From Planctomycetota bacterium (lineage in GTDB: Bacteria; JAJVIF01; JAPKYR01): DNA of 37,932 nt. Numbering within the stretch: the stretch's first letter is position 1; the number at the start of each line of letters is the position of its first letter. A program made the position numbers and the translations under genes. Of the stretch, positions 1,140 to 17,245 are shown one piece after another. The stretch is taken from the NCBI GenBank assembly GCA_030614715.1, contig JAUWTM010000020.1, positions 1 to 37,932 of the forward strand, given 5' to 3'. The notes beneath the pieces are model-generated. The model did no database searches. It saw only the letters and a program-made list of their open reading frames with translations, and was not told where the DNA came from.

Positions 1140-1901
1140 TATGTTTATCCTGAATAACGATACGGCAAACGACATTCGATCGCCACACGTACGATCATAA
1201 TTAGTATCTGGAAGGGTAGGTGGATTTTCGCATAATCAAATTTAATACCGTCCAAGATATATAGATAGTAGAACGATCAAAAAGGTTTAATTTTTCCCAC
1301 ACAAGACGTTACTTCTTCGATTCACCAGAGATCAGATTATCAGAAATCATAAATGCTGATTCTCAGAGACATACATTCTGGCAGAATCAAAAAATCAACG
1401 TATCGACCTTTAATGCTCGAAAATCACAGAATTAGTAAAAAAAATATTTAATGTTGCTTAAATAAAATCTTCGTTATCCCACTCAGTACACCTCCGAACT
1501 GCCTGCAAGTCAGTACATGCTTAATAACGTAGCGGATATAGCTTGAACATGATAGAATTAGCGTAGAAGGCTTATGAACACAGGGATTGGGACCATCAAG
1601 CCGGTACCAGGGATGCTAGATCGAATTGAACCTGGGAAAGATTTTGGTGGCAGGTGATCGATCTATGGTCATTTTTTGGTAAATCCAGTAACTTTAAGTT
1701 AACCAGATATGTGAAAAAATCATCTAAAAGATGTTGACCTAAAAGGCTCAAGATTCTACAATGTAATGGGTCCAATCAGGATTCAATGTTGATTTTAATA
1801 CTTGACCATTGTGACGTTTCGCCTGAAAAAACGGCGGTGTGGTTCGTTGTACTGTAAACGGATACGATGGAAAAATTAATGATAACCGTGGAGGTTACAA
1901 G
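1140..1901. other. AT-rich intergenic region, no gene recognised
   Basis: This 760-base region separates the ABC operon (reading left) from the 1902 lipoprotein gene (reading right). It is clearly more AT-rich than the flanking genes and contains only short, uncompelling open frames. I see no tRNA, no strong terminator and no sigma-54-type -24/-12 element. It probably holds the two divergent promoters, but I could not pick them with confidence. Confidence 0.5.
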
Positions 1902-3575
1902 ATGTTCAGGTTACCCCTAATTGCTGTCCTTCTTCTCGGAGCATTGCTGGCGCTCGCATGCTCTGGAGGAGGAGCGAATGTTACCCCAACCACGCCCGAT
2001 ATAACCGGGCAGGCCGGCAATGTTGAAAACCACGTGGCTTGGGGAGTTTTTGATATTGCGTTGGATGCCGAGACAGGTTCTGCAGAAATAATCTGGAACC
2101 GTCAGGCGGAAGTCCATCTCAATGTAACAGGCTCGGTAACACCTCCGGGCTGCTACACATGCGTAAACGTTGTGGATTCCTTCTACGATGTCCCCGCGCT
2201 GAAATTCTACCTGCAGGTGGCGTTCATAAATCCGACTCACATTACCGGATACGACGTCCGCGCGGTGATCAGCAACACGGGAGGAGACAAGGTTCTGCTG
2301 AATTCTGACGGAATCACCGAGGTCTGGGGCGCACCGATGCCCTTCAAGGCCATCAACGTTGATCCCGAACGCACATTCGGTCCGTTCGAGGCTCACGGCA
2401 GGATGTTCGAATTTTACTTCCCGCCGGGAGAGAAGTTCTCGACAATGACATACATCGTCGACGCGTCATGGCCGACAAATGTTGATGAACCGTTGATCGA
2501 GGAAGGTAACTCGCCGATGGTGATCAACAACGGCTTCTCGACGACATACATTCAGACCAAAATCATGGATCACCAGGGTGACCTGAACGTCCAGATGGTC
2601 ATCGCGGACCTCGTGCTTCTCAACGGAAGCCCGCAGACCTTCCTGTTCGACGACGGACTGCATAATGACGGCTTCGCCGCCGACGGGATATTTGGTACAG
2701 ACCTGTTCACCGTACCCAATACTGTCCCCACAAGCATCTACATGATCAACGTATTTGCGTTCGACCTTGGAGGTCACATGGGATGGGGTCAGGTTCCGGT
2801 GTTCGTATCCGATCAGGGTATCGGACCCAACGAGCCTCCTGTAATCGACAGCATTGTTACGGACAGGACAACAGCCAACGGAGCCAAGAACGAGAAGGTC
2901 AAGATCACTGTCAATGCACATGATCCTGACGACTCCAACCTTGGTTACGAGTTCGAGGGAACGGGAACATTCACCCCGGGTCCGAACGACAACGAGGTCT
3001 TCTGGAAGCCGTCGTCCACCAGTACCGGACCGCAGTTAATCAATATTACGGTAATGGATACAAAGGGCGGCCAGGACACAGGGCAGGTTACACTCTGGTC
3101 CACGAACCTGAGCGTTGTCCTGGGCTCCACCGGTGGAATGATCCCGAACGGCACCCTGCCGTCGATCGTCCCCTCGGATACCCTCAACATGAGTTCCGAC
3201 TTCCAGGGCCAGGTGGTCTACATCAACATCTGGGCGACATGGTGCGGATACTGTGTAGCCGAGATGCCGGATCTCACCGCGGTATATAACCAGTACAAGA
3301 GCACCCCGGGCTACAACCAGATTTTCCTCAATCTGCAGGAGTCCGAGAGCACCGCGAACAATTTCATCAACTCGCATAACTACGCGTGCACGTACTGGGC
3401 CATGGATACCAACGGTTCCTACTTCAACTCACTGAAACCGTTCAACGGCTCAGGCTCAAGCGGAATTCCGCAGCACTTCGTGTTCGACCGCGACAACCGC
3501 TGCAGATACGGGAAGGTCGGAGCGTTCATGTCAGGTACCCAGGAACTAGAGGGAGTAATCGAGCAGCTACTGTAA
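1902..3575 (+). CDS. Lipoprotein with shared N-terminal module and C-terminal thioredoxin-like (TlpA-type) domain
   Basis: This is a 557-residue lipoprotein. The signal sequence is MFRLPLIAVLLLGALLALAC with the lipidated Cys at 20. Residues about 45-300 match the module shared by the lipoproteins at 6353, 7570, 9330 and 11729: an opening like VAWGVFDIALDAETG, then NPTHITGYDVRAVI, the FKAIN segment and a MDHQGDLN strand. A DDG...ADGIFGTD segment resembles acidic Ca-binding loops of extracellular anchor domains, followed by an Ig/cadherin-like stretch. The C-terminal ~145 residues are redoxin-like (QVVYINIWATWCGYC) with the CXXC cysteines at 448 and 451, as in TlpA/ResA. ATG 1902 was chosen over an in-frame GTG at 1839 because GGAGG sits 7 bases upstream and a lipoprotein signal starts there. 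A terminator follows. Unlike its relatives it has no visible sigma-54 promoter. A thiol-disulfide role outside the cytoplasm is inferred. Confidence 0.85.
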   Translation: MFRLPLIAVLLLGALLALACSGGGANVTPTTPDITGQAGNVENHVAWGVFDIALDAETGSAEIIWNRQAEVHLNVTGSVTPPGCYTCVNVVDSFYDVPALKFYLQVAFINPTHITGYDVRAVISNTGGDKVLLNSDGITEVWGAPMPFKAINVDPERTFGPFEAHGRMFEFYFPPGEKFSTMTYIVDASWPTNVDEPLIEEGNSPMVINNGFSTTYIQTKIMDHQGDLNVQMVIADLVLLNGSPQTFLFDDGLHNDGFAADGIFGTDLFTVPNTVPTSIYMINVFAFDLGGHMGWGQVPVFVSDQGIGPNEPPVIDSIVTDRTTANGAKNEKVKITVNAHDPDDSNLGYEFEGTGTFTPGPNDNEVFWKPSSTSTGPQLINITVMDTKGGQDTGQVTLWSTNLSVVLGSTGGMIPNGTLPSIVPSDTLNMSSDFQGQVVYINIWATWCGYCVAEMPDLTAVYNQYKSTPGYNQIFLNLQESESTANNFINSHNYACTYWAMDTNGSYFNSLKPFNGSGSSGIPQHFVFDRDNRCRYGKVGAFMSGTQELEGVIEQLL

Positions 3576-5487: not shown

Positions 5488-5827
5488 AACCTGTCTCCTT
5501 TTCTGGCGTCATGTCCTCCAATGAATGGAGGCTGCAGTTGGTTAGGACAGTTTATCAGATTTAAATAAATCGGCAAGCTAATTTGGCGATCGGACATGAG
5601 CCGGAGATCTTGTTCACCGGTATAAAAACTCCTTATCCACCTTTAACCCGGGTTGTTAAATTTTGCACTGGCTGAATTCCAGGCTGTTAAAATCTGCTCT
5701 CAAAGTGAAAGAGTCAAAATTTACTTACAAACGTAAAATCTGACAGGTGAAATTATTACACATGGATTACCTTTATTGATGCTGGTTACACGGCACGCAT
5801 GCGATTTCCCGGATAAATTCCGACAGT
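5488..5827. other. Divergent intergenic region upstream of the acidic protein and the sigma-54 cassette
   Basis: This is AT-rich non-coding sequence. Close to the GTG of the minus gene is a small inverted repeat (CCTCC...GGAGG, about 5516-5532) in its 5' leader. The remainder (5640-5827) should contain enhancer-type activator sites if the 5828 promoter is a true sigma-54 promoter. I could not define such a site, though TGTTAAA/AAATTTAC-like AT-rich words recur here. Confidence 0.4.
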
Positions 5828-5843
5828 TGGCACGTCTTGTGCA
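5828..5843 (+). promoter_or_regulatory. Sigma-54 promoter of the small 64-aa gene
   Basis: TGGCACGTCTTGTGCA matches the -24/-12 consensus (TGGCACG-N4-TTGCW) with GG at 5829-5830 and GC at 5841-5842, exactly 12 bases apart. The expected start of transcription is near 5854, 26 bases before the ATG. Confidence 0.8.
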
Positions 5844-5879
5844 TTATACGTCAGCGGTTAATAACCGGGAGACCGAGAT

Positions 5880-6074
5880 ATGAGATCAAATCAAAGCAAA
5901 TTACTAATCGTACTGGTGCTGATTTCGCTCGTGGTCGTTATGAAATTCATCAGTTTCGCGACCGATCCGGCAAATGAAAATCTACAAAGCAAAGCCGATT
6001 ACACGATGCTTTGCAGCGATTTGGGTATAGAAAATATCAAGGTGATCAACATTGGAGGTTACGTCGTATCGTAA
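5880..6074 (+). CDS. Small membrane or secreted protein of 64 residues, unknown function
   Basis: I do not recognise this protein. Residues 1-7 are polar and basic (MRSNQSK), 8-28 are strongly hydrophobic, and the remaining ~36 residues are polar and end VINIGGYVVS. It could be an uncleaved membrane anchor or a signal peptide without a lipobox. It is likely real because it has a perfect-spacing sigma-54 promoter at 5828, GGGAG 8 bases before the ATG and its own hairpin terminator just downstream. The same arrangement is used by the four lipoprotein genes that follow. It would be co-regulated with them and may serve them as a partner or signal peptide, which is an inference from position only. 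Confidence 0.65.
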   Translation: MRSNQSKLLIVLVLISLVVVMKFISFATDPANENLQSKADYTMLCSDLGIENIKVINIGGYVVS

Positions 6075-6110
6075 TAGACATAAACCAGCATCGCCACAGA
6101 TCGAATAAGG

Positions 6111-6158
6111 GGAGCACCGACTGGTTTGACAAGCAGGACCGGTGCTCCCTGATCTTTT
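6111..6158 (+). terminator. Terminator of the small 64-aa gene
   Basis: Stem GGAGCACCG (6111-6119) / CGGTGCTCC (6140-6148) with a 20-base loop; CTGATC then five T follow. It lies 37 bases after the stop codon. Confidence 0.7.
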
Positions 6159-6291
6159 TCCTCTCATACTGAGAGATTTCCTACCCGTACACCAATAATC
6201 TGAAAATTTACTGTATAAATTCGAAGACTGTAAGCCTTTAAACAGTGGCGTCACAGGCATTTCCACATGGATAAATGGAAATTACGCAGAC

Positions 6292-6307
6292 TGGCATATC
6301 GTGTGCA
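6292..6307 (+). promoter_or_regulatory. Sigma-54 promoter of the lipoprotein gene at 6353
   Basis: TGGCATATCGTGTGCA, with GG at 6293-6294 and GC at 6305-6306 (12-base register). The -24 box has T in place of the last C. Predicted transcription start is about 6318. Confidence 0.72.
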
Positions 6308-6352
6308 TAACAGGTTGTTGAAATCGTATCCAGCCCGGAAGGAGCACCCGTT

Positions 6353-7288
6353 ATGAAAACTCTCACGAACACCCTGATAGCGACCCTTGCAGTGATTGCC
6401 GCACTTGGCGCATTCGGATGCGGCAGTTCATCGCACGACCCGGTAATCCCGGATGAAAGCACAGCTCAGAATATCATCGATATTGCCGGATTCACCGGTG
6501 ATGAAACCGGTCACTACATTATGGCCAGGTACCAGGTAACTATCAATCCTGCAAACGGAACCATAGAGGCTGTCGAGGACCGAATTGCAGACGCGCACTT
6601 CAACATCTCGAAATTCGTCAAGCCTCACGTGAAATTTGAAAACGTCTTCTATAACCCTATCCCGTTTATGCCTTACACGACGTTCCAGATGACAATAACT
6701 AACCCGACACAATGGAGTGTGTACGACGTAAGGGCGATCTATTGCGAGGTTCCGGGTTCGAGCGATTACCTGGTAAATCCCGATGACTATACAGCGTGGT
6801 TCAATTACGCGGAGGGCCAGATCAACGGTTTCAAGGCATTCGCGAAACAGGCCCAGAACAGGCGCTTCGGTGCCGGAGAGACCTACTTCGAAACCTTCAA
6901 CGTCTACTGCCCGGATTTTCCGGATCCAACGGTCATGGACATCATAGTCACGTGTTCGTTCCCCGGAAACTGCGAAGATCCGTACGAGATCTCGGACCAG
7001 GCAATGAGCGGATCAGTCGATCCCTTCACCGGAGCTGAGTTCTCGGTCAACATAAAATGCCACCAGGGCATCCCGGAGTTCGTTTACGTCGACACAACCG
7101 CAATCAACGGCAATCCAACCTACCTGACACATCAGGGCGGAGATAAATGGACCGGCACCATCTACGCGCCATATTTCGGGGCTTCGGGCTGGTACACCTG
7201 CAGGATCGTCGCCGATTGCTATTACGGATCTGCCCAGTATTACTACGGAGAAACCCTGTATGACCTGATAGATATAGAAATTCAGTAA
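6353..7288 (+). CDS. Lipoprotein, shared-module family, minimal form
   Basis: This 311-residue lipoprotein has signal MKTLTNTLIATLAVIAALGAF-GC with the modified Cys at 23. After a low-complexity linker rich in Pro, Asp and Ser, the whole body is the family module. It opens with a strand ending NPANGTIEAVEDRIADAHFN, followed by KFVKPHVKFENVFY, TNPTQWSVYDVRAIY, the NGFKAFAKQ segment, CSFPGNCEDPYEISDQ, a VYVDTTAINGNPTYL strand and a closing GWYTCRIVADCYYG. Paired Cys in the CSFPGNC segment suggest a disulfide. The module looks all-beta. It is the closest relative of the next gene, and the two appear to be a tandem duplicate. AAGGAG lies 8 bases before the ATG, with a sigma-54 promoter upstream and a terminator downstream. 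I do not recognise a named domain; a cell-surface role is inferred. Confidence 0.85.
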   Translation: MKTLTNTLIATLAVIAALGAFGCGSSSHDPVIPDESTAQNIIDIAGFTGDETGHYIMARYQVTINPANGTIEAVEDRIADAHFNISKFVKPHVKFENVFYNPIPFMPYTTFQMTITNPTQWSVYDVRAIYCEVPGSSDYLVNPDDYTAWFNYAEGQINGFKAFAKQAQNRRFGAGETYFETFNVYCPDFPDPTVMDIIVTCSFPGNCEDPYEISDQAMSGSVDPFTGAEFSVNIKCHQGIPEFVYVDTTAINGNPTYLTHQGGDKWTGTIYAPYFGASGWYTCRIVADCYYGSAQYYYGETLYDLIDIEIQ

Positions 7289-7323
7289 CCCGTCCGGGCA
7301 TCACGTTCCGAATATATATTCCC

Positions 7324-7356
7324 AGGCACCGGCATCCATCCGACCAGCCGGTGCCT
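7324..7356 (+). terminator. Hairpin terminator of the lipoprotein gene at 6353
   Basis: Ten-base-pair stem AGGCACCGGC (7324-7333) / GCCGGTGCCT (7347-7356), followed by a weak tail (CTCTATATT). Confidence 0.65.
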
Positions 7357-7510
7357 CTCTATATTAATATGAAATTTCTCTCAGATTGAAAGGAATCCGA
7401 ACCGCTTGTAAAACGGTGGCAAATTATACAGATTTAAGGACTACCCGTAAGGCCCATCAATACAGAGATTCAGACAAATTTGCATGGTGTAACAGGGAAT
7501 TAATCAAGGA

Positions 7511-7526
7511 TGGCACTGTTAATGCA
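7511..7526 (+). promoter_or_regulatory. Sigma-54 promoter of the lipoprotein gene at 7570
   Basis: TGGCACTGTTAATGCA, with GG at 7512-7513 and GC at 7524-7525. Predicted transcription start is about 7537. It overlaps an upstream in-frame ATG at 7510, which rules that ATG out as the start of the gene. Confidence 0.8.
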
Positions 7527-7569
7527 TTATAACGGTCAGACGTATCCAAACAGTGAAGGAGCGACCGTT

Positions 7570-8502
7570 ATGAAAACTTTATCGAACTCAATTATCGCAA
7601 TCCTGGCAGTTGTAGCCCTCCTCGGCGCATTCGGGTGCAGCAAGGGCACACCGGACCCCGTCACGCCCGATGATCCCACGGCGAACACCGTCCCGGAGAT
7701 CACCGGACTCGAGGAGAGCGGTCATTTCATGCTTGGACAGTACACACTGGTCTTCGATCCCGTAACCGAAACACTCGAAACGATCGAGTCAAGGACTGCC
7801 GACAAGCATTTCAACATCACAAAATTCGTCAAGCCCTATGTCAAGTTCACAAACCTCTACTACAGCTCGTTTCTTGAACAACTCTCATTCGACATGAGCA
7901 TTACCAACCCGTCCATCTACACCGTATTCGATGTTCGGGCAATCTACATGGAAGCACCCGGATCGAGTATTTATCTCGACAACGCTGATGACTACACGAT
8001 GTGGTTCAACTATTACCAGTACATGACCAACGGTTTCAAGGCGTTTGCCAAGAACACTTACAATAGAAGCTTCATGCCCGGTGCGACGCACACACAGACA
8101 ATGTACTTTAACCTGCCAGTATGGGAGACTCCTGCGGACCCCGCGACCTTCGATATCATCGTTTCCTGCTCGTTTCCCGGTAACTGCGATGATCCGTACG
8201 AGATCTCCGGTCAGCAGGCGTATTATTCAGTAGATGTGCCCGGTGGAATCGTGATCGAGACCAAGGTATACGATCACAACAACGGTCCCAACTGGGTCAC
8301 TGTGGATACATGGCAGATCAACGGCGGCTGGACCTGGCTTACAAAGTATCCCGACAACAAGTGGCAGGGCGTTGTATACAACACCCAGAACGCACCTGCA
8401 GGCTGGTACTACTGCCAGATCAGTGCCGATAACTATTACGGTTCCGAGCAGGACTATTTCGGAGAGGCGTTGTTCGACTACGTCTGGATACAGGTGCAGT
8501 AG
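7570..8502 (+). CDS. Lipoprotein, shared-module family, minimal form (tandem paralogue)
   Basis: This 310-residue lipoprotein has signal MKTLSNSIIAILAVVALLGAF-GC with the lipid Cys again at 23. It follows the 6353 protein through its full length: FNITKFVKPYVKFTNLYY, TNPSIYTVFDVRAIYMEAPGSS, the NGFKAFAKN segment, CSFPGNCDDPYEISGQ and a final GWYYCQISADNYYGSEQ. Differences are spread along the chain, as for an older tandem duplicate. The frame is open back to 7510, but the sigma-54 -24 box lies there and AAGGAG (7556-7561) precedes ATG 7570, so 7570 is the start. A strong terminator follows at 8549. The function is not known. Confidence 0.86.
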   Translation: MKTLSNSIIAILAVVALLGAFGCSKGTPDPVTPDDPTANTVPEITGLEESGHFMLGQYTLVFDPVTETLETIESRTADKHFNITKFVKPYVKFTNLYYSSFLEQLSFDMSITNPSIYTVFDVRAIYMEAPGSSIYLDNADDYTMWFNYYQYMTNGFKAFAKNTYNRSFMPGATHTQTMYFNLPVWETPADPATFDIIVSCSFPGNCDDPYEISGQQAYYSVDVPGGIVIETKVYDHNNGPNWVTVDTWQINGGWTWLTKYPDNKWQGVVYNTQNAPAGWYYCQISADNYYGSEQDYFGEALFDYVWIQVQ

Positions 8503-8548
8503 ACAAGAAAACATCCAACCAGACTTCGTCACAAACCGGAATCACGTG

Positions 8549-8577
8549 ATCCGGCCCGCTCAAGGGCCGGATTTTTC
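8549..8577 (+). terminator. Rho-independent terminator of the lipoprotein gene at 7570
   Basis: Stem ATCCGGCCC (8549-8557) / GGGCCGGAT (8564-8572) with loop GCTCAA, followed by TTTTC. Confidence 0.88.
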
Positions 8578-8614
8578 TTTCAATTTACCTGACAACAACG
8601 GCATACACCACTGC

Positions 8615-8689
8615 CACGTCCCGTCCTCATCAATCCAGCCCGGAGGGGTAATGTCCACATCACCCGGCGTGAGCACGTCCCGTCCTCAT
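8615..8689 (+). repeat. 16-bp direct repeat pair
   Basis: CACGTCCCGTCCTCAT occurs identically at 8615-8630 and 8674-8689. Confidence 0.85.
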
Positions 8690-8694
8690 CGCTT

Positions 8695-8717
8695 GCGGTG
8701 ACAGTCACCCGGATTTG
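8695..8717 (+). repeat. 23-bp direct repeat, copy 1 (copy 2 at 8983-9005)
   Basis: GCGGTGACAG followed by (T/GG)CACCCGGATTTG appears at 8695-8717 and 8983-9005 with one or two differences. The copies bracket the two twin-hairpin elements and the MITE-like element. Confidence 0.75.
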
Positions 8718-8724
8718 CCCTTAT

Positions 8725-8778
8725 GTAGCACGCGCGTCCCGCGCGTGATTACCGGTCGCATGCACGTCACGTGCATGC
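8725..8778. repeat. Twin-hairpin dispersed element, copy 1
   Basis: Hairpin A is CACGCGCG-TCC-CGCGCGTG (8729-8747). Hairpin B is the near-perfect palindrome GCATGCACGT-C-ACGTGCATGC (8758-8778). They are joined by ATTACCGGTC. The architecture matches the element at 23286-23336, including the GTCGCAT junction before hairpin B. Confidence 0.75.
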
Positions 8779-8791
8779 TTTTCTTGAAAAC

Positions 8792-8883
8792 GGTTAAAGG
8801 GGACAGGCAACGTTTTTGCTACAGCGAAAGTGGACACATCAGCAGGACAGGCAGACGCAAAAAAGTGACAGTCCCCTTTAACC
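8792..8883. mobile_element. 92-bp MITE-like element with terminal inverted repeats
   Basis: The left end begins GGTTAAAGGGGACAGGCAAC (8792 onward). The right end, read from 8883 backwards, begins GGTTAAAGGGGACTGTCAC. The ends share a perfect 13-base terminus and then diverge slightly through a T-run and GC for about 28 bases in total. No coding capacity is visible. It is too short to encode a transposase, so it would depend on one in trans. Confidence 0.65.
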
Positions 8884-8929
8884 TCCTTCAACTTTGAATT
8901 TTATTTTAAATCTGAATCTATTACGTAGC

Positions 8930-8970
8930 GCAGTCTGCCAGACTGCAGTACCGCGGACGGCCCTGTCCGC
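8930..8970. repeat. Twin-hairpin dispersed element, copy 2 (diverged)
   Basis: Hairpin A is GCAGTCT-GCC-AGACTGC (8930-8946) and hairpin B is GCGGAC-GGCCCT-GTCCGC (8953-8970), separated by AGTACC. It is preceded by TACGTAGCG, comparable with TATGTAGCA before copy 1. Confidence 0.55.
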
Positions 8971-9043
8971 TATTCCTCGACAGCGGTGACAGGCACCCGG
9001 ATTTGGCTCCATAGGTTACTGTAGTAAGTCAAGATCACCGTTT

Positions 9044-9097
9044 CGCCAAATCCGTCCGCCAGTCCCCTATATACGCCAAATCAGTCCGCCAGTCCCC
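9044..9097 (+). repeat. Tandem 24-bp repeat, period 30
   Basis: CGCCAAATC-N-GTCCGCCAGTCCCC occurs at 9044-9067 and 9074-9097 with a single mismatch. Confidence 0.85.
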
Positions 9098-9251
9098 GCG
9101 AGTATATCGAAGTTTCGCTCTCAAATTGACAGAATCTCGGAAAAGTACATTTTCAGTACAGTATTCCATCTGAATTAATTATCGCAATAAACCCGCATAA
9201 ACAGTGGGATACAGGCCAAATACCGGAATATTTCCAAATATCTGCATTAAG

Positions 9252-9267
9252 TGGCACCCAACGTGCA
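9252..9267 (+). promoter_or_regulatory. Sigma-54 promoter of the lipoprotein gene at 9330
   Basis: TGGCACCCAACGTGCA, with GG at 9253-9254 and GC at 9265-9266. Predicted transcription start is about 9278. Confidence 0.8.
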
Positions 9268-9329
9268 TTTATCAGGGCAGCATTCTCCATTTGCTACGTA
9301 ACGCTCAAATTTCCAAGGAGGAAATCAAA

Positions 9330-11372
9330 ATGACTAAGAAATATTCCCCCCTACTGATCATCTTAGCGATATTCGCGATGTTTGCTGCATTCGGTTGCGG
9401 CAACTCGTCAAATCCCGCAACCCCCGAACTGGCCGGAGCCAACGACCTTGAGCTGGCAGGCGATTCGGAGGTTTCAGAGGGCTCGAGCGTCTGGGCAATC
9501 TTAGACGTGACCTTCGACCCCGAAACCAACACCATGGAAGCGGTGGAAGTTCGCAATGCGGAAACCCATTACGACATCACGCCGTTCGTCGCACCGTACT
9601 GCCTTTTCTCAGGCATTTATTACGACGCTGCGACCCAGTACCTGGAATTCGACCTGGAAATGATGAATCCATCCGCTATCGACGTCTGGGACGTCCGCGT
9701 TCTGATGCTTGCCGATCCGACAATCGGATGGGAACTTCTGAACGTCGATGACTACACCAAGCTTTTCAGCCCGTTCCCGCCGTCACAGGTCAATCCTTTC
9801 ATCGCTTATGCCGAGTCAGTACCACTTAGAGAATTCGGTGCCGGCCTGATTCACATTGAGAAGTTCGAGATGCGAACTCCCCTCGTTATCCCGTCACCGC
9901 TCGGATTCAGGCTACTCGTCGAGTGTTCACATCCCAGCAACTGCGAAGACGTGTACTTGATCGACAACCAGACACTGAGCAATCCCATCAGCGACACTGT
10001 CGTTGGTTACATGTCAGTTGACGTTTTCGACTGGCAGGGTAACATCGGCCAGGTCTACGTTGACACGACACCGATCACCGGTGGCCTATCATGGCTCGGT
10101 AACACCGGCGGCGACACCTACGAAGCCGGTATTTTCAATTCAGCCGGTGCCGCACCTGGCAAATACATGTGCATGATCACTGCTGATTCCTGGTCGAGTC
10201 CCGATAACCTCTACGATTTCCTTGAGATTGAAGTTATTCCGGGATCCACCACGTCAGGTGGCTGGGACGGAACAGACTACAACATCAACGGTGGCTGCGG
10301 CATGGACCTTGGCGTCATCGCAGATCCCGGCGGACCCCGCGACAGCGAGATCCTGATGGCCGGTAACAACATTGCCGCCTGCGATGCTGTCATCAAGTAC
10401 GATCCTTACTATGCTGCGAATTCACTCTACGTAGCTCTCGACAATTACGATCCCGACAACGACGACTACCAGCCTTACCCGATAGACCGAATCGATGCAG
10501 CTGACGATGGCGCGTTCAGCTTCACGAACACAAACCCCGATATTTTCATCGGTGGTGCGATCTGGATATACAACTTCATGGTATGGACCTGCTTCGACAA
10601 TATCCCGCAGGCCTACATGGGTCCGTCCCCGATGGAGAGCCGGTATTACTTCGATCTCTCCTACATGGACATTCAGCCCCGACCTGCCGACGTCTGCGAC
10701 GACTTTGAGCTTGGTCAGTACGCTCTCTTCACCTCGACTTACACTTACGCTCCTGAGGACCTGTTCCTGATCGGCACGATGCCCGGAACGTACACTCACG
10801 ACCTCGTCAAGTTCAAGGCCAACATGGACACGTTTGCCGGTATCGGTGACGGACTGGTCGATCCTGACGGAATCCTCGGAATCGACACCATCGAGTTCCA
10901 CAATGACGTCGACGGCGTGCGACTCTACGTGCTTGAGAGCAATGGCGGACTCCCTCAGGTCGAGGTTTTTGAGATTCACGACACGAAGTCGGGCTTCGAT
11001 AACGATGCGATCTCTCACATCATGACCATAGATATTGATACGACTCCCCTGATCGATTACGGGTGGATCGAAATGCTCGGTGCTCTCGACATCGAGATCC
11101 TTCCGATCAACAACGACTACGATCTGAACCCGAACGATCACACCGTGTGTGTGCTGGTCGACTGGTACGGAAGCCCTTACATGAACGGCGAGATTTTTCT
11201 CTACAACGCCCAGACCGGTGCTTTCCTCGAGACCGTTGGCGATGCCCTCAACATCGCACTCGAGAACACCTCACCTCATCACCTTGACACCGATGACGGT
11301 GACTGGGAGATCCATGTAAGCCATACCGATGCATCGGGTGTTAACCTGGTGACAGTCTTTGATCACAGTTAA
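9330..11372 (+). CDS. Lipoprotein, shared-module family, with a large ~370-residue C-terminal domain
   Basis: This 680-residue lipoprotein has signal MTKKYSPLLIILAIFAMFAAF-GC, lipid Cys 23. Residues about 45-305 are the family module: VWAILDVTFDPETN, ITPFVAPYCLFSGIYY, NPSAIDVWDVRVLM, a VNPFIAYAE segment, CSHPSNCEDVYLIDNQ and GKYMCMITADS. Residues ~310-680 form a second domain not present in the shorter relatives. It is rich in Asp, Tyr and Gly, with recurring strand-like segments (DSEILMAGNNI, NSLYVALDNYD, VCVLVDWYGS, EIFLYNAQTGAF), suggestive of a beta-propeller. I could not assign a family. AAGGAGG (9315-9321) places the start at ATG 9330 rather than the in-frame ATG at 9204, which lies upstream of the promoter. 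It ends at a strong terminator. Confidence 0.86.
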   Translation: MTKKYSPLLIILAIFAMFAAFGCGNSSNPATPELAGANDLELAGDSEVSEGSSVWAILDVTFDPETNTMEAVEVRNAETHYDITPFVAPYCLFSGIYYDAATQYLEFDLEMMNPSAIDVWDVRVLMLADPTIGWELLNVDDYTKLFSPFPPSQVNPFIAYAESVPLREFGAGLIHIEKFEMRTPLVIPSPLGFRLLVECSHPSNCEDVYLIDNQTLSNPISDTVVGYMSVDVFDWQGNIGQVYVDTTPITGGLSWLGNTGGDTYEAGIFNSAGAAPGKYMCMITADSWSSPDNLYDFLEIEVIPGSTTSGGWDGTDYNINGGCGMDLGVIADPGGPRDSEILMAGNNIAACDAVIKYDPYYAANSLYVALDNYDPDNDDYQPYPIDRIDAADDGAFSFTNTNPDIFIGGAIWIYNFMVWTCFDNIPQAYMGPSPMESRYYFDLSYMDIQPRPADVCDDFELGQYALFTSTYTYAPEDLFLIGTMPGTYTHDLVKFKANMDTFAGIGDGLVDPDGILGIDTIEFHNDVDGVRLYVLESNGGLPQVEVFEIHDTKSGFDNDAISHIMTIDIDTTPLIDYGWIEMLGALDIEILPINNDYDLNPNDHTVCVLVDWYGSPYMNGEIFLYNAQTGAFLETVGDALNIALENTSPHHLDTDDGDWEIHVSHTDASGVNLVTVFDHS

Positions 11373-11396
11373 CTCGGACTCCTGATATACACGGAC

Positions 11397-11430
11397 GCCG
11401 GCCACCTCACGGTGGCCGGTGTTTTTTTTT
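11397..11430 (+). terminator. Rho-independent terminator of the lipoprotein gene at 9330
   Basis: Stem GCCGGCCACC (11397-11406) / GGTGGCCGGT (11411-11420) with loop TCAC, followed by G and nine T. Confidence 0.92.
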
Positions 11431-11452
11431 ATACAAACTGCCCCCCTGCCTA

Positions 11453-11494
11453 CAATGCCCCAACCTACAGTGCCCCAACCGTCAGGGAGGGGGT
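11453..11494 (+). repeat. Dispersed ~42-bp repeat, copy 1 (inverted copy at 18273-18315)
   Basis: The sequence contains two TGCCCCAACC-type units followed by GTCAGGGAGGGGGT. The reverse strand of 18273-18315 carries the same series (two TGCCCCGAC units, then GTAAGGGAGGGGGT). Both lie just after a gene end in non-coding DNA, and in one frame both read ...APTVREGV. Confidence 0.8.
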
Positions 11495-11612
11495 CTGTTC
11501 TCTTTCTATACCCCACTCGCTAACGCTCGGGGCTCGGTATTATCCTTTCAATATGAGAGAAATCAGGAACCGCATTATCGGGAACCACATGCCCACTTCA
11601 AGCCATCCGCTG

Positions 11613-11654
11613 AAGCCCGCATGAATAGGGGGATAACGGGCTTGTTATTTTTTT
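11613..11654 (+). terminator. Terminator-like hairpin just upstream of the 11671 promoter
   Basis: AAGCCCG (11613-11619) / CGGGCTT (11637-11643), then GTTA and seven T. It has no gene of its own and lies 17 bases before the sigma-54 -24 box, so it may insulate that promoter from upstream transcription. The rest of 11431-11612 holds only the dispersed repeat. Confidence 0.5.
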
Positions 11655-11670
11655 AACAAATTCCCCGTAA

Positions 11671-11686
11671 TGGCACGATTTATGCG
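11671..11686 (+). promoter_or_regulatory. Sigma-54 promoter of the proline-tail lipoprotein gene
   Basis: TGGCACGATTTATGCG, with GG at 11672-11673 and GC at 11684-11685. It is followed by TTATACG, as at the 5828 promoter. Predicted transcription start is about 11697. Confidence 0.8.
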
Positions 11687-11728
11687 TTATACGTGATGCA
11701 TTCTAATCCCCTTGAAGGAGTAAATATC

Positions 11729-12934
11729 ATGAAACGGTTACCAACCACACTACTGATCCTCCTGATCTCGATCCTTCTGCTGGGTTCAGTCGCCTGTGGA
11801 TCCGCCGGTTCCAATCCCGCGACACCGAGCCTTTCGGGCAACAGCGCACCAGTTGTTGACACCGAAGGTACAGGCGTGCTGGGAGTCTGGGACGTGACGT
11901 TCGATCCCGATTCAATGACAATCGATGCCCTTGAATCGCGTGACGCAGCCCAGCATTTCAACATAACCGGCTTAGTCCAACCCACGATGACATTCGGAGT
12001 TGTATCCTACAACCCCGCGGCCGGAATCCTCATATTCAATGCTTTCATCACCAACCCATCCAATCTTGCAGTCTACGACGTCCGGACGCTCTTCCTGTCA
12101 GGTCCGGGACTGGGCTATCAACTGCAAAATCCCGACGATTACACGGCATTATTCAATCCCTACGGCCCCGGTATCGTCAATCCGTTCAAAGCATACGCCA
12201 AAACTGCGATAAGCAGGCAGTTTGGCCCCGGGTTGACCTACCAGGAACAGTTCCAGGTACAGATTCCCATCGGCTCTGCACCACCGTTCAGCTTCCAGCT
12301 GCTTGTCGAGTGCTCGTGGCCTGCAAACTGCGACGATGTCTATGAAATTTCAAATCAGACTGTCAGCAACATCGTAGACAACATGACATCGGCAATTATT
12401 TCCCTCGACGGATTCGATCACCAGGGAAATATCAGCGGAATTTATGTCGACACGACACCAATCACCGGAGGATTCACGAATCTTGTGATTTCCAGTACTA
12501 CAACATGGAAGGGCACAGTAATCAATTCAGCAGGTGCTCCCGCGGCAACTTACTCGTGCATGATTGTGGCGAACAGTGCCGGGACGCCCGACGCCCTTTA
12601 TGACTTTGTGAATATTGTGGTTGGGAACTCTTCAATGCCAGCCCCGCCCCCTCCACCCCCACCACCGGTAAATACCCCACCGCCAACAAGTCCAACACCG
12701 ATACAACCACCAACGGGTACGCCACCGCCCCCACCCGGACCGCCACCACCGCCGCCCCCAGTGCCGCCACCGACACCACCGCCTGTTCCGCCACCAGTTC
12801 CTCCGATACCACCGCCTCCACCGCCAAATCCGCCACCGCCACCACCGATACCTCCTCCTATACCTCCTCCGCCACCACCGGCACCGCCTCCTCCTCCACC
12901 GACGCCTAATCCTCCACCTAATCCCGGTGGTTAG
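11729..12934 (+). CDS. Lipoprotein, shared-module family, with a ~98-residue proline-rich tail
   Basis: This 401-residue lipoprotein has signal MKRLPTTLLILLISILLLGSV-AC, lipid Cys 23. Residues about 40-300 are the family module (VWDVTFDPDSMT, HFNITGLVQPTMTFG, NPSNLAVYDVRTLFL, VNPFKAYAK, CSWPANCDDVYEISNQ, IYVDTTPITGGFTNL, ATYSCMIVANS). From residue 304 to the end the chain is mostly proline with scattered T, N, V, I, A and G. Such a tail should be an extended polyproline-II rod and might span the cell wall or bind other surface proteins. AAGGAG (11714-11719) precedes ATG 11729, and the upstream in-frame ATG at 11693 lies before or at the expected transcript start. A strong terminator follows. 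Confidence 0.86.
   Translation: MKRLPTTLLILLISILLLGSVACGSAGSNPATPSLSGNSAPVVDTEGTGVLGVWDVTFDPDSMTIDALESRDAAQHFNITGLVQPTMTFGVVSYNPAAGILIFNAFITNPSNLAVYDVRTLFLSGPGLGYQLQNPDDYTALFNPYGPGIVNPFKAYAKTAISRQFGPGLTYQEQFQVQIPIGSAPPFSFQLLVECSWPANCDDVYEISNQTVSNIVDNMTSAIISLDGFDHQGNISGIYVDTTPITGGFTNLVISSTTTWKGTVINSAGAPAATYSCMIVANSAGTPDALYDFVNIVVGNSSMPAPPPPPPPPVNTPPPTSPTPIQPPTGTPPPPPGPPPPPPPVPPPTPPPVPPPVPPIPPPPPPNPPPPPPIPPPIPPPPPPAPPPPPPTPNPPPNPGG
12638..12931 (+). repeat. Proline-codon low-complexity tract
   Basis: Nearly 300 bases of CCN codons encode the proline-rich tail of the lipoprotein. The codons are mixed CCA, CCG, CCC and CCT rather than a single repeated triplet, so the tract is not a simple recent slippage expansion. 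Confidence 0.9.
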
Positions 12935-12955: not shown

Positions 12956-12985
12956 GCACCGACCGAACGGGGTCGGTGCTTTTTT
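12956..12985 (+). terminator. Rho-independent terminator of the proline-tail lipoprotein gene
   Basis: Stem GCACCGACC (12956-12964) / GGTCGGTGC (12971-12979) with loop GAACGG, then six T. Confidence 0.92.
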
Positions 12986-13116: not shown

Positions 13117-15246
13117 ATGGAAAAACCGAACGATAAAGAGATAAAGTTCGGAATGTTCGGAGGGGTTTTCACCCCGAGCGTGCTGACTGTGATCGGTGTA
13201 ATCCTGTTTCTCAGGACAGGATGGCTGGTCGGTAACACCGGACTCGGCGGCGCCTTACTGATAATTCTTATCGCGCATACGGTAACTGTCGCGACAGGCC
13301 TGTCGCTCTCATCAATTACGACAAACATCCGGATCGGTGCAGGGGGCGCGTACACGATTATCGCACGATCGCTCGGGCTCGAAGTCGGAGGTGCGATAGG
13401 AATCCCCCTTTACCTCTCGCAGTCAATCTCCGCAGCGTTTTACATTGCAGGATTCACTGAAGCGTGGATCGTGCTCTACCCCGAACACCCACCGCAGCTC
13501 GTAGCAGCCACGTCGTGGGCTGTACTCACGCTCATTGCATATATAGGAGCTCACTGGGCGATACGGATCCAGTACGTGATCATGGCAGCGATCGTCCTGT
13601 CACTCGCCTCATTCTTCATAGGGAATCCCGATATTGAAACAGCAACTCCCGAGTTGTGGGGCAGGTTTCAGGGCGCGCCGTTCTGGACTGCCTTCGCGAT
13701 CTTTTTCCCTGCAGTTACAGGTATCATGGCGGGTGTCAGCATGTCCGGTGACCTTAAGGATGCCAGGTCAGCCATACCGAAGGGAACGATGTGGGCGATA
13801 GGAATCGGATTCCTCGCCTATGTTGGCGCTGCGATCATTTACGCATACAGGGCTGGTACGGAAACACTCCTTGAAAATCCCGCGATCATGATCGACATCA
13901 GCACGCTCGGATGGACATTCTATGTCGGCGTCTTTGCAGCCACTTTGTCATCAGCACTTGGGTCGCTTGTTGGTGCACCAAGGACGCTTTACGCGCTGGG
14001 TGAACATGGTGTAATTCCGGGATCGAAGTTTTTCTCACAGAAGACGGTCACGGGGCAGCCTCGAAACGCGGTCATACTGACAAGTGCCATCACACTGGTA
14101 TTTGTTCTTGCTGGCACACTCGACACCATCGCCCAACTCCTGACCATGTTCTTCCTGATCACGTACGGAATGGTGAACCTGGTTACGTTCATCGAGAAAG
14201 TCACCGGCATAGTCAGCTTCCGGCCATCGTTCAGGGTCCCGACGTTTGTCTCGCTGTACGGCGCAGTGGCGTGCCTGTTCATCATGCTGGTTATCAGCCC
14301 GATCACCGGATTTCTCGCGATCCTGGTTACTGCGGGTATCTATTTCATGCTGGTTCGACTTGGCCTGAAAACCCGATGGGGCGATGTGAGGAGCGGACTG
14401 CTTTCAACGATCGCGGGATGGGCCGCACGCCAGGCAGTTCACCTGCCGCGACATGAAAAGTCATGGACTCCCGACATCCTGCTCCCACTTGAAGTACCCC
14501 GTGAGAGTTCAACCCTTATCCGGTTCGCACGCGATATCTGCTACCCGGGAGGAAGTGTCATCGCATTCAGCGTCACCGAAGAAGGGCATCGCAGCAAGCT
14601 TGTCGAACTGGACAAGGCTCTTGAACCGATTCGTAAGGACAAGCTGTTTTTCGTGTCGTCGGTAGTCGAGGGTGATGACTTTGTCGACAAGGCGCGCACG
14701 ATAATTCAGCTTCTCAGGGCAGTTTTCTTCCGTCCGAATGTGCTGCTGATCACACTCAGCGATGATCCCGACAAGGACGGTAAAGTGCATGAGATTGTCG
14801 GAACTGCAATCAATGAGAACATGGGAATCGCGATTCTCAAGCATCACCAGGAGATAGAGTTCGGGAACCGGCAGGTAATCAACCTGTTCCTGAGGGATAA
14901 GAGCCCGAACAAGGACCTTGCGATCCTGCTCGCGCTTCAGTTGAGGCGTAACTGGAACGATGCAAGGCTCAACCTCGTTTCACTCGCCGGGGACGACAAC
15001 GACAGGGTCACGCAGAGGGAATTTTTCGGAAACCTGAAGGAGGAAGCACGGCTACCATCGGGGACGTCGATAAATATCATCCAGGGTAAGTTCCCCGAAG
15101 ACCTTGCGAAGATGCCGGAATGCGACATCGCGATTTTCGGTACGGGCATGCAGATCTCGACGGACCAGATACGGACCATCTTCACACACAGCAAGGTGTC
15201 GTGCCTGTTTATCCGCGACTCCGGCTTCGAAAGCGCGTTTGTGTAG
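13117..15246 (+). CDS. SLC12-like (cation-chloride cotransporter / APC superfamily) membrane transporter
   Basis: This 709-residue integral membrane protein belongs to the APC superfamily. The start GMFGGVFTPSVLTVIGVILFLRTGW-like region (residues ~12-36) is the first-helix signature of cation-chloride cotransporters. It is followed by IGAGGAYTIIARSLGLEVGGAIG and about twelve hydrophobic segments up to residue ~430. Residues ~445-709 are a soluble cytoplasmic domain with alternating strand and helix segments, as in bacterial SLC12 relatives. Substrate ions or amino acids cannot be deduced. No clear SD precedes ATG 13117 at normal spacing, so the start could be a few codons off. It stands as a single gene between terminators and the LRR gene. 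No sigma-54 promoter is present. Confidence 0.88.
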   Translation: MEKPNDKEIKFGMFGGVFTPSVLTVIGVILFLRTGWLVGNTGLGGALLIILIAHTVTVATGLSLSSITTNIRIGAGGAYTIIARSLGLEVGGAIGIPLYLSQSISAAFYIAGFTEAWIVLYPEHPPQLVAATSWAVLTLIAYIGAHWAIRIQYVIMAAIVLSLASFFIGNPDIETATPELWGRFQGAPFWTAFAIFFPAVTGIMAGVSMSGDLKDARSAIPKGTMWAIGIGFLAYVGAAIIYAYRAGTETLLENPAIMIDISTLGWTFYVGVFAATLSSALGSLVGAPRTLYALGEHGVIPGSKFFSQKTVTGQPRNAVILTSAITLVFVLAGTLDTIAQLLTMFFLITYGMVNLVTFIEKVTGIVSFRPSFRVPTFVSLYGAVACLFIMLVISPITGFLAILVTAGIYFMLVRLGLKTRWGDVRSGLLSTIAGWAARQAVHLPRHEKSWTPDILLPLEVPRESSTLIRFARDICYPGGSVIAFSVTEEGHRSKLVELDKALEPIRKDKLFFVSSVVEGDDFVDKARTIIQLLRAVFFRPNVLLITLSDDPDKDGKVHEIVGTAINENMGIAILKHHQEIEFGNRQVINLFLRDKSPNKDLAILLALQLRRNWNDARLNLVSLAGDDNDRVTQREFFGNLKEEARLPSGTSINIIQGKFPEDLAKMPECDIAIFGTGMQISTDQIRTIFTHSKVSCLFIRDSGFESAFV

Positions 15247-15355: not shown

Positions 15356-17245
15356 ATGAGTTACAGGCATTCAGTATGGCTTGTTTTATTCACAATAACA
15401 CTGGTTATATTTCCTGCGGTGAGTGCATACGCTGATAATCCGGTATTTTTTCCGGATCTTGAGTTGGAATCCGCGATTCGCGAGTTGATAAAGAAGCCTG
15501 ACGGCGAGTTAATGGACTCAGATGTTACCGGCATTACTGAACTGGAATTGATGTACAGGAACATTGTCGATTTCGAGGGCATACAGAACCTGACTAGTCT
15601 TCAGAAACTGACCATCCACTCAGAGCATTGGATATACACAATGATGGAAGTAATGACTGAGTTTATGGGGAGCGAGGTGGAAATTTCAGGTGGTTATGAA
15701 GGACCACCGACAATTAATATCGATCCGATAGGGCAGGCAAACGGTCTGACCGATCTCACTATTGCGTCCAGTCATTTAGATAATATCTCCGTCCTGCAGA
15801 ATTTGCACAATCTCGAATCGCTGAATCTGGCGGATAATCACATCGGTGACCTGTCTCCTATTTCTGATTTTTATCAGCTCAAGCGCCTGTATGTATCGAG
15901 AAATCCAATCAATAACTTTTCCACGTTACATGGACTTACAAACCTTGAATACCTTGGCGTAGCGGATACCGGAATGGTTAGTCTCGGTCCTGTCGAGCAC
16001 TGCACTAACCTTGTTGAATTAAATGTAACGAAGAATCCGCTGGAGTACATCGATCCACTGGGCAATTTCACTGGACTGGAAATACTGGATATGTCATTAT
16101 GCGGTTTGCATGATATACAACCTGTCGGGAACCTGGGCAATTTAAGAAACCTCAGCCTTTGGTCAAATAATCTAACGAATATCTTACCACTTGGGAATCT
16201 GACGCATCTCCGTACCGCCAACCTTTCCAGCAACCGTATTTCCGATATCGCACCGCTGGCTCGTTGTAGTGAATTGGTATACCTGGACCTTGGGTACAAT
16301 AATATCGAAAGCCTTGTGTCTATCAACGGCTTTCCACTATTGAAGGTATTGAACCTGAGCCATAATAACATTAACGATCTCACACCACTCGCATCCTGCA
16401 CTGGAATTGTAGATCTGAACATCGGCAACAATCCGGTTGAGAACGGTGCACCGTTGAGTTATTTAACGGACATTGAAATTTTTAGACTTTCTGGCACCGA
16501 AATTAATGATCTTGAATTTCTCATGCCAATGCAACATTTGGAAATTCTGGATATCGGTAACACGAAAGTATCTGATATATCACCTCTGGCAGAAGTAATA
16601 TCACTGGAAGAACTGGAAATCGGAATTACTCAAATAGCGGATTACTCACCACTTGGGAATCTACAAAACCTCGAAAGGTTAAGCATTAGATCGAGTAATG
16701 AGGAGCCGGTAATAATAGATCTTCAAGGTATTTCAGGTCTCGTAAATCTCAGTGATCTTGAACTGTGGTACTGTCAATTTGACGACCTTTCATTCTTAGA
16801 AGGGATGTTAGGCTTAACCAGTCTCGATTTTCACATGAACGAACTGGATGAGTTCCCGGCGTTCGAGGGCCTTATTAATCTTAGAAACCTTGATGTCGAA
16901 GGCAACCCTTTGACGTCTGTACCAGTTGTTAATTGTTATCCGTCACTAGAATCCCTTAATCTGGGGTTCAACGACATTTCAGATATAGATAATCTCGTCA
17001 GCAATTGCACTATCACATACGTGGATTTGCAATCTAATGAGATTGAAGACATCAGTGCTCTTTTGGAAATGTCTGCACTGGAATCAGTTTCATTATTGGC
17101 CAATCCGCTGAATTCCTACGCTTTTGAAGTTGTTATTCCGGAACTTGAAGCACGAGGCGTAAGTGTTTCATGTAATACCGAATCGGAAACCAGCACACTG
17201 ACCCAGTCAACTTGTGGACAACCGAGTGAGAATTCTGTTGATTGA
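15356..17245 (+). CDS. Secreted leucine-rich-repeat protein (internalin/SDS22-like)
   Basis: This 629-residue protein has a signal peptide (MSYRHSVWLVLFTITLVIFPAVSAYA). A short cap follows (FFPDLELESAIRELIKKPDG...DVTGITEL), typical of the region before internalin-type LRRs. Then come roughly 18-20 repeats of about 22 residues with the pattern L..L..L.L..N.I.D..PL, for example LESLNLADNHIGDLSPIS and LKVLNLSHNNINDLTPLA, to about residue 600. The tail is polar and carries no recognisable membrane or wall anchor. GGAG lies upstream of ATG 15356. The gene is visibly more AT-rich than its neighbours (AAT, GAT, TTG and ATA codons are frequent), which hints at acquisition. LRR proteins of this kind bind proteins; the ligand is unknown. 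Confidence 0.87.
   Translation: MSYRHSVWLVLFTITLVIFPAVSAYADNPVFFPDLELESAIRELIKKPDGELMDSDVTGITELELMYRNIVDFEGIQNLTSLQKLTIHSEHWIYTMMEVMTEFMGSEVEISGGYEGPPTINIDPIGQANGLTDLTIASSHLDNISVLQNLHNLESLNLADNHIGDLSPISDFYQLKRLYVSRNPINNFSTLHGLTNLEYLGVADTGMVSLGPVEHCTNLVELNVTKNPLEYIDPLGNFTGLEILDMSLCGLHDIQPVGNLGNLRNLSLWSNNLTNILPLGNLTHLRTANLSSNRISDIAPLARCSELVYLDLGYNNIESLVSINGFPLLKVLNLSHNNINDLTPLASCTGIVDLNIGNNPVENGAPLSYLTDIEIFRLSGTEINDLEFLMPMQHLEILDIGNTKVSDISPLAEVISLEELEIGITQIADYSPLGNLQNLERLSIRSSNEEPVIIDLQGISGLVNLSDLELWYCQFDDLSFLEGMLGLTSLDFHMNELDEFPAFEGLINLRNLDVEGNPLTSVPVVNCYPSLESLNLGFNDISDIDNLVSNCTITYVDLQSNEIEDISALLEMSALESVSLLANPLNSYAFEVVIPELEARGVSVSCNTESETSTLTQSTCGQPSENSVD

What the first reader, a model, noticed from the sequence alone, without database searches (positions are those of the whole stretch)
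5828..12934. Five consecutive genes each with a perfectly spaced sigma-54 promoter
TGGCA(C/T)-N7-TGC(A/G) occurs at 5828, 6292, 7511, 9252 and 11671. In all five the GG and GC pairs are exactly 12 bases apart, and each site lies 38-64 bases upstream of an SD and ATG. I found no acceptable match ahead of the other genes. Established knowledge: sigma-54 promoters need the -24 GG and -12 GC in this register plus an enhancer-binding activator. Inference: this is a dedicated regulon of individually transcribed genes, each closed by its own terminator, that puts surface lipoproteins under one switch.
Basis: partly seen in the sequence, partly recalled or inferred. Interest (0 to 1): 0.75.

Follow-up and report, generated by a model that had tools for sequence, protein, structure and literature searches.

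The report
Sigma-54 regulon for a lipoprotein clade
Five neighbouring genes in an uncultured bacterium, four of them predicted lipoproteins, each carry the same two-part switch (a distant enhancer palindrome and a sigma-54 promoter); the switch recurs elsewhere in the genome and in two relatives, and a likely activator gene has been found.

Summary
The five -24/-12 sites are real, with GG and GC 12 bases apart (the spacer is N6, not N7). Alone they would be weak: genome-wide the motif is no commoner than its backwards control (31 vs 28). Each site has a 15-bp palindrome, CTCTCA-N3-TGAGAG (at most 1 mismatch), centred 120-128 bp upstream: an enhancer.

The genome has 18 such palindromes. Thirteen lie outside frames of 300 aa or more, and all 13 face a -24/-12 site at 114-149 bp (one weak, 7 of 10); the other five lie in frames of 301-617 aa. 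The modules precede one clade of a very large lipoprotein family, other secreted or small membrane proteins, and a tiny ORF divergent from a GAF-AAA+-Fis activator gene. Two same-family genomes keep the activator (70-71%), its palindrome and divergent promoter, and modules before their closest lipoproteins, one with a changed -12.

The regulon reading holds, amended: gene 1 is no lipoprotein, only one clade of the family is controlled, and gene 2 lacks a clear terminator. It is a new member of a known kind. There are no expression data.

The parts
5697..5711 (.). Enhancer palindrome (UAS) of gene 1, CTCTCAAAGTGAAAG
   Evidence: 1 mismatch to CTCTCANNNTGAGAG, centre 125 bp before -24 GG
5828..5843 (+). 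-24/-12 promoter of gene 1
   Evidence: 10 of 10 consensus letters
5880..6074 (+). Gene 1, 64-aa protein with an N-terminal hydrophobic stretch, no lipobox
   Evidence: ORF, translation, no Pfam match above cut-off
6109..6150 (+). Hairpin after gene 1, T-run a few bases later
   Evidence: z -3.24
6161..6175 (.). UAS of gene 2, perfect CTCTCATACTGAGAG
   Evidence: 0 mismatches, 125 bp
6235..6250 (+). Second element of gene 2
6292..6307 (+). -24/-12 promoter of gene 2
   Evidence: 9 of 10
6353..7288 (+). Gene 2, lipoprotein, 311 aa
   Evidence: no Pfam or NCBIfam match
7324..7356 (+). Hairpin after gene 2, no T-run
   Evidence: z -5.14
7378..7392 (.). UAS of gene 3, CTCTCAGATTGAAAG
   Evidence: 1 mismatch, 127 bp
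7453..7468 (+). Second element of gene 3
7511..7526 (+). -24/-12 promoter of gene 3
   Evidence: 10 of 10
7570..8502 (+). Gene 3, lipoprotein, 310 aa
8548..8573 (+). Terminator-like hairpin after gene 3
9118..9132 (.). UAS of gene 4, CTCTCAAATTGACAG
   Evidence: 1 mismatch, 128 bp
9194..9209 (+). Second element of gene 4
9252..9267 (+). -24/-12 promoter of gene 4
   Evidence: 10 of 10
9330..11372 (+). Gene 4, lipoprotein, 680 aa, family domain plus an extra C-terminal part
11393..11424 (+). Terminator-like hairpin after gene 4
11545..11559 (.). UAS of gene 5, CTTTCAATATGAGAG
   Evidence: 1 mismatch, 120 bp
11618..11633 (+). Second element of gene 5
11671..11686 (+). -24/-12 promoter of gene 5
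   Evidence: 9 of 10
11729..12934 (+). Gene 5, lipoprotein, 401 aa, proline-rich C-terminal tail
12956..12979 (+). Terminator-like hairpin after gene 5

Best explanation
The five genes belong to one sigma-54 regulon. Each has its own -24/-12 promoter and, 120-128 bp upstream, one 15-bp palindromic enhancer (CTCTCA-N3-TGAGAG). The enhancer is most likely bound by a one-component activator (GAF, AAA+ sigma-54 domain, Fis-type HTH) encoded elsewhere in the genome, on contig C179. On an unknown signal the activator at the palindrome loops to RpoN polymerase at -24/-12 and opens the promoter. This switches on a clade of lipoproteins, a few other secreted or small membrane proteins, and a short transcript divergent from the activator's own gene. 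Shown by sequence: the motifs, their spacing, recurrence and conservation, rpoN, and the activator gene with a palindrome beside it in three genomes. Inferred: binding, looping, the signal, surface location.
For: Palindrome ahead of 5 of 5 window sites and of C214, C217, C183. Of 18 palindromes in the genome, 13 have a -24/-12 site of at least 8 of 10 letters at 109-154 bp, 0.27 expected; one of them (C95) is coding and dropped, and C213 (7 of 10) is added, giving 13 modules, all in frames of 222 aa or less while the 5 rejected palindromes lie in frames of 301-617 aa. Joint pattern: 8 hits in the own genome, 0 backwards; 6 hits in 38 genomes outside the family. rpoN present with AID, CBD, DBD. 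Of five strong activators only the C179 one has the palindrome in the stretches held, and its orthologs in G001 and G002 keep palindrome and divergent -24/-12 site; GAFTGA and SEATLYRWI identical in the three. In G002 and G001 the 6 module palindromes lie in frames of 34-87 aa, the other 7 examined in frames of 355-816 aa.
Against: Bare motif not enriched genome-wide (31 vs 28). The palindrome with 2 mismatches is not in excess (102 vs 121); with 1 mismatch it is barely so in G001 (6 vs 5) and G002 (8 vs 5). C12, inside the module clade, has no module. G001:C9 has TGT instead of TGC at -12. C227:4459 is a -24/-12-like site about 200 bp before a family lipoprotein with no palindrome ahead of it. 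Two palindromes outside long frames in G004 have no promoter. rpoN was not searched for in G001 or G002. No transcript or binding data.
Confidence: 0.8

Rival explanations
1. Same sigma-54 regulon and same palindrome, but the palindrome is bound by another protein (one of the four receiver-type activators or a non-sigma-54 regulator), and the C179 activator gene merely is another target.
For: Adjacency is the only link between the C179 activator and the palindrome; four other activators exist.
Against: Palindrome beside this activator in 3 of 3 same-family genomes; none in the stretches held around the other four; identical HTH stretch.
Confidence: 0.15
2. The -24/-12 letters are half of a symmetric operator (GCAY-N5-RTGC) for some repressor and not a promoter.
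For: GCAC and GTGC form a dyad at sites 1 and 4.
Against: Over 18 modules the base at -15 is free (G 11, A 2, C 3, T 2) and does not follow the left half, while the off-dyad T, G, G are invariant (the reading of compensation is mine). rpoN and activators are present.
Confidence: 0.04
3. The shared sequences are passive relics of recent duplication of one promoter-gene unit, not a selected regulon.
For: Module-bearing family members fall in one clade of 11 rows, and four are tandem in the window.
Against: Proteins have diverged to 36-51% identity to gene 2; spacer bases are near random while motif bases are near invariant; modules also stand before unrelated genes (C183, C7, C157, the C179 small ORF) and before lipoproteins of another genus.
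Confidence: 0.03
4. Chance or ordinary sigma-70 promoters.
For: Bare motif not enriched in the genome.
Against: 0 of 100 shuffles in the window; UAS-promoter pairing far above expectation; sigma-70-like sites 5 found vs 7.9 in shuffles.
Confidence: 0.02

Closest known systems
Sigma-54 regulons with UASs of Desulfovibrio vulgaris (PMC4641369, passages read)
   Same: UAS about 100 bp or more upstream of -24/-12; one-component GAF activators; activators divergent from sigma-54 promoters; some drive ncRNAs.
   Different: No lipoprotein is mentioned there (0 occurrences of the word); different lineage; palindrome and targets here found independently.
Sigma-54 as controller of the bacterial exterior, including Rrp2 of Borrelia (PMC3162934, passages read)
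   Same: Sigma-54 linked to envelope and lipoproteins.
   Different: That work concerns gene associations across genomes; in Borrelia the route runs through rpoS (abstract starts of PMC6719511 and PMC1976401). Here the lipoprotein genes themselves carry the promoters.
QseF-GlmY and CbrB-CrcZ (abstract start of PMC6075780; passages of PMC6296734)
   Same: A sigma-54 activator that drives a small RNA as well as protein genes; in QseF-GlmY the theme is the envelope.
   Different: The RNA-like block here has no Rfam match and no target was found; that it is an RNA at all is inferred.
PspF-pspA (recalled, not looked up)
   Same: Activator gene divergent from its sigma-54 target with the enhancer between them, allowing self-control.
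   Different: PspF lacks a GAF domain; other targets.

Membership tests
Sigma-54 (-24/-12) promoter | GG and GC 12 bases apart in TGGCAC-N5-TTGC-like context | tested here: met
   5 of 5 window sites; -15 is a purine in all five, not the usual T (consensus recalled)
Sigma-54 (-24/-12) promoter | rpoN in the genome | tested here: met
   One match with AID, CBD, DBD; RpoN-box-like SRRVITKYR read (box recalled)
Sigma-54 (-24/-12) promoter | Upstream enhancer and activator | tested here: met
   Palindrome at 5 of 5 sites; five strong activators. Binding not shown
Sigma-54 (-24/-12) promoter | Transcript start about 12 bases after GC, dependence on RpoN | not testable with these tools
   No expression data
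Sigma-54 enhancer-binding protein (C179) | Sigma54_activat domain, GAFTGA loop, Fis-type HTH | tested here: met
   PF00158 3.2e-69, PF02954 4.9e-6; GAFTGA
Sigma-54 enhancer-binding protein (C179) | Binds the palindrome | not testable with these tools
   Only adjacency in three genomes
Known lipoprotein families (Pfam, NCBIfam, PDB) | Match to a curated family or solved chain | tested here: not met
   Genes 2-5: 0 Pfam, 0 NCBIfam families; 33-row profile, 0 PDB chains at E up to 1
Known sRNA families (block divergent from the activator) | Rfam match above gathering score | tested here: not met
   Only a chance-level miRNA hit, E 6.2

The most novel reading that the evidence does not exclude
A three-part sigma-54 control unit (palindromic UAS, a second element fixed 57-62 bp after it, and the -24/-12 promoter) run by one GAF activator. 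It turns on a set of lipoproteins together with a new sigma-54-driven small RNA encoded divergently from the activator: a one-signal change of the cell envelope in an uncultured lineage with an exceptionally large lipoprotein repertoire.
Probability: 0.3. Interest if true: 0.65.

Novelty: new member of a known kind. Interest (0 to 1): 0.5.

Why it matters
It gives a complete, testable regulatory prediction (sigma factor, promoter, enhancer, activator, 13 modules) in an uncultured bacterium whose lipoproteins match no curated family. One relative, G002, appears to be a cold-seep MAG (CSMAG_1386; contig coordinates of L100 and G002:C490 coincide; catalogue paper PMC10491686 seen in a search listing only). 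It also shows how one clade inside a very large lipoprotein family became tied to a single switch and mostly kept it through duplication. The fixed second element and the conserved RNA-like block are new leads.

Tried and rejected
Bare motif as proof: rejected, not enriched genome-wide. Extended motif TGGCACN5RTGCATTATA with up to 3 mismatches: no excess (31+17 vs 31+29 control), though it led to C217.

C95 (G000) and C215 (G002): palindrome plus -24/-12 at 154 bp in homologous places. Rejected because both lie in a conserved open frame that looks like a glycosyltransferase by eye. Palindromes at C73, C118, C205 and C227:4789: in frames of 301-617 aa, no promoter. G003: one palindrome has a site of 8 of 10 letters at 130 bp, but in a 374-aa frame and without the T of TGC.

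The Ser/Thr kinase gene on C179 as first target: rejected. Its ORF starts about 440 bp beyond the promoter, behind a tiny ORF and a hairpin; it is not seen at this place in the G001 locus held, and the G002 contig ends too soon to tell.

RNA-like block: conserved in 3 of 3 same-family genomes. A pattern in the G000 register finds it once in G000; G001 and G002 are one base shorter there and so were not matched. Pairing with translation starts of 10-11 regulon genes is no better than with controls: negative. Helical phasing of the UAS distance: weak (R about 0.4).

Structure of the lipoproteins: never run; the queue was full at each of 9 tries. Taxonomic placement beyond the depositor's label of G002 ('Planctomycetota bacterium') was not worked out.
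Full report
OBSERVATION. The pattern that fits is TGGCAY-N6-TGCR: 5 hits in the window, 0.25 expected, 0 of 100 shuffles reach 5. The typed N7 pattern gives none. Each site is followed within 36-62 bases by an ATG with an SD-like sequence. The 4.29 Mb genome holds 31 hits in all, against 28 for the backwards control. Of the 26 outside the window, 25 were read in context: 19 lie inside an ORF of 80 aa or more (not counting C183, whose site lies in the extended frame of its own gene). C214:3159 and C183:11657 stand right before lipoprotein genes, C146:7817 before a pilin-like gene (my reading of the protein), and C35, C38 and C203 have no clear target. The 26th, C227:4459, lies about 200 bp before a family lipoprotein with no palindrome ahead of it. 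So the window cluster is unusual, but the bare motif cannot define a regulon.

THE MISSING HALF. Reading the upstream DNA of eight sites (five in the window, C214, C217, C183) showed a shared palindrome, CTCTCA-N3-TGAGAG, once each. Its centre lies 120-128 bp before the -24 GG in 7 of 8 and 141 bp in C183. With at most one mismatch it occurs at 18 places in the genome. Thirteen of the 18 have a -24/-12 site of at least 8 of 10 letters at 109-154 bp in one orientation; 0.27 would be expected. One of these, C95, is coding, with the same protein conserved in G002, and is dropped. C213 is a weaker case (7 of 10, 114 bp), kept because its palindrome is perfect and it has the second element described below. 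That leaves 13 modules: five in the window, C214, C217, C183, C157, C7, C22, C179, C213. The longest open frame through the palindrome is 29-222 aa in these 13 and 301-617 aa in the other five.

SPECIFICITY. A joint pattern (CTCTCA-N3-TGA, 107-137 bases, TGG-N9-TGC) hits 8 times in the own genome with 0 for its backwards control. It hits once in G002, not in G001, and 6 times in the 38 other genomes, at most once each; the backwards control gives 3 in those 38. The same pattern with one base too many in the spacer, run by mistake, hits 0 times in G000-G002, a check on the register. Allowing two mismatches, the palindrome is not in excess in the own genome (102 vs 121). With one mismatch it is barely so in G001 (6 vs 5) and G002 (8 vs 5), and not clearly in the same-class genomes G003 (2 vs 1) and G004 (3 vs 5).

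THE ACTIVATOR. The genome has one rpoN with all three sigma-54 domains. It has five strong activator matches and three weak ones. Four of the five carry receiver domains and one, on C179, a GAF domain. Only the C179 stretch holds the palindrome; it ends 15 bp before the longest reading frame, and the true start may be some 25-55 bp further on. On the other strand, 149 bp away, is TGGTGCCCTGTGTGCA. G001 and G002, the two same-family genomes, have orthologs (71% and 70%). They keep the palindrome, about 140-160 bp before the activator start, and a divergent -24/-12 site at 153 and 149 bp. GAFTGA and the HTH stretch SEATLYRWI are identical in all three. In G003 and G004 the best matches cover only the AAA+ and C-terminal part. 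Of their five palindromes three lie in long frames; one of these, in G003, has an 8-of-10 site at 130 bp in a 374-aa frame. The two outside long frames, both in G004, have no promoter.

CONSERVATION OF TARGETS. G002 appears to be the cold-seep MAG CSMAG_1386. Two of its lipoprotein genes have full modules: C490 at 119 bp and C209 at 121 bp. A third module, on C510 at 118 bp, ends at a contig end that shares 25 bases with the start of C199, which carries the third close lipoprotein. In G001 the single close lipoprotein has the palindrome, but its promoter reads TGGCAT-N6-TGTA. In G001 and G002 together the 6 module palindromes lie in frames of 34-87 aa and the 7 others held in frames of 355-816 aa; one more, G002:C570:7492, was not read. 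In a tree of 33 family members the module carriers lie in one clade of 11 (support 100/99). Of these, 9 have the module (G001:C9 with the changed -12), C199 probably through C510, and C12 lacks it. Of the 30 best-scoring family members in the own genome 6 have the site (three of the other 24 alignments begin well inside the protein, so their upstream region was less well tested). The family gives 155 matches in this genome, with 150 of 402 candidates scored and some proteins matched twice. A more distant relative, C22 (hhalign 99.1%), also has a module. The family member at the other end of the window (1839-3575) has none.

ARCHITECTURE. Over 18 modules (13 of G000 without C213, 4 of G002, 2 of G001), T, G, G and the later T, G are invariant, C at -12 is 17 of 18, and spacer bases are near random. 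The clade's proteins are 36-51% identical to gene 2, so the motifs are under selection. Most of these modules were chosen by the presence of the register, so its constancy is partly built in; the fair test is the 18 palindromes above. A second element, roughly CNCATAAANAGNGGGA, starts 57-62 bp after the palindrome in 11 of 19 modules. The motif score is 176.9 against at most 151.0 in 40 dinucleotide shuffles, and its crowding in one 5-bp window is 11 against at most 5. Eight of the eleven are related genes; C157, C7 and C213 are not. It could be a site for a DNA-bending protein or a second activator contact; not tested.

OTHER TARGETS. Gene 1 of the window (64 aa) and C157 (139 aa) look like small membrane proteins; C183 has PPC domains; C7 looks like another lipoprotein. 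C213 has no ORF close by; a secreted-looking protein starts about 370 bp on, behind a hairpin. The divergent C179 promoter leads to a 38-aa hydrophobic ORF (35 aa in G002; in G001 I see no ATG ORF there, reading). It then leads to a block of about 65 bases with a GC-rich hairpin, conserved in all three genomes while its flanks are not. It looks like the 3' part of a small RNA; Rfam has no match, and no preferred pairing with regulon starts was found.

MECHANISM AND STANDING. Best reading: the GAF activator senses a signal, binds the palindrome, loops to RpoN polymerase and opens each promoter; its own palindrome, near its start, may let it control itself (inference). Sigma-54 regulons with UASs, one-component GAF activators, and activators divergent from sigma-54 promoters, some driving ncRNAs, are known in Desulfovibrio (PMC4641369 passages). 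Control of the envelope is a known sigma-54 theme (PMC3162934 passages). The kind is known; the member is new. No paper on this palindrome or lipoprotein family surfaced in the searches, which is weak evidence of absence. Everything rests on sequence; transcription and binding remain to be shown.

Noticed in passing
whole genome G000 (155 matches); window 1839-3575 is one of them: A very large lipoprotein family in one 4.3 Mb genome; most members examined have no sigma-54 module, and the family has no Pfam, NCBIfam or PDB match.
   Followed up: partly
G000:C179:8408-8440 (-) and hairpin to about 8380: Block of about 65 bases divergent from the activator gene, conserved in three genomes, Rfam-negative; candidate sigma-54-driven small RNA.
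   Followed up: partly
G000:C146:7817: TGGCATAGGAATTGCA not inside an ORF of 80 aa, ahead of a pilin-like gene: perhaps a target of another activator.
   Followed up: no
G000:C227:4459: TGGCACTTTCCTTGCA about 200 bp before a family lipoprotein, without the palindrome: perhaps a second sigma-54 input or chance.
   Followed up: partly
window 8600-9100: Intergenic stretch between genes 3 and 4 with repeat-like phrases (CGTCACGTG, GTCTGCCAGACTGC, CCGTCCGCCAGTCCCC); similar phrases seen near C12 and C179. Possibly dispersed repeats.
   Followed up: no
window 12640-12934: Gene 5 ends in a long proline-rich tail (P-rich with N, T, G, V), unlike its paralogs.
   Followed up: no
window 15356-17245: Leucine-rich-repeat protein of 629 aa, next to a cation-chloride cotransporter-like gene at 13117-15246.
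   Followed up: no
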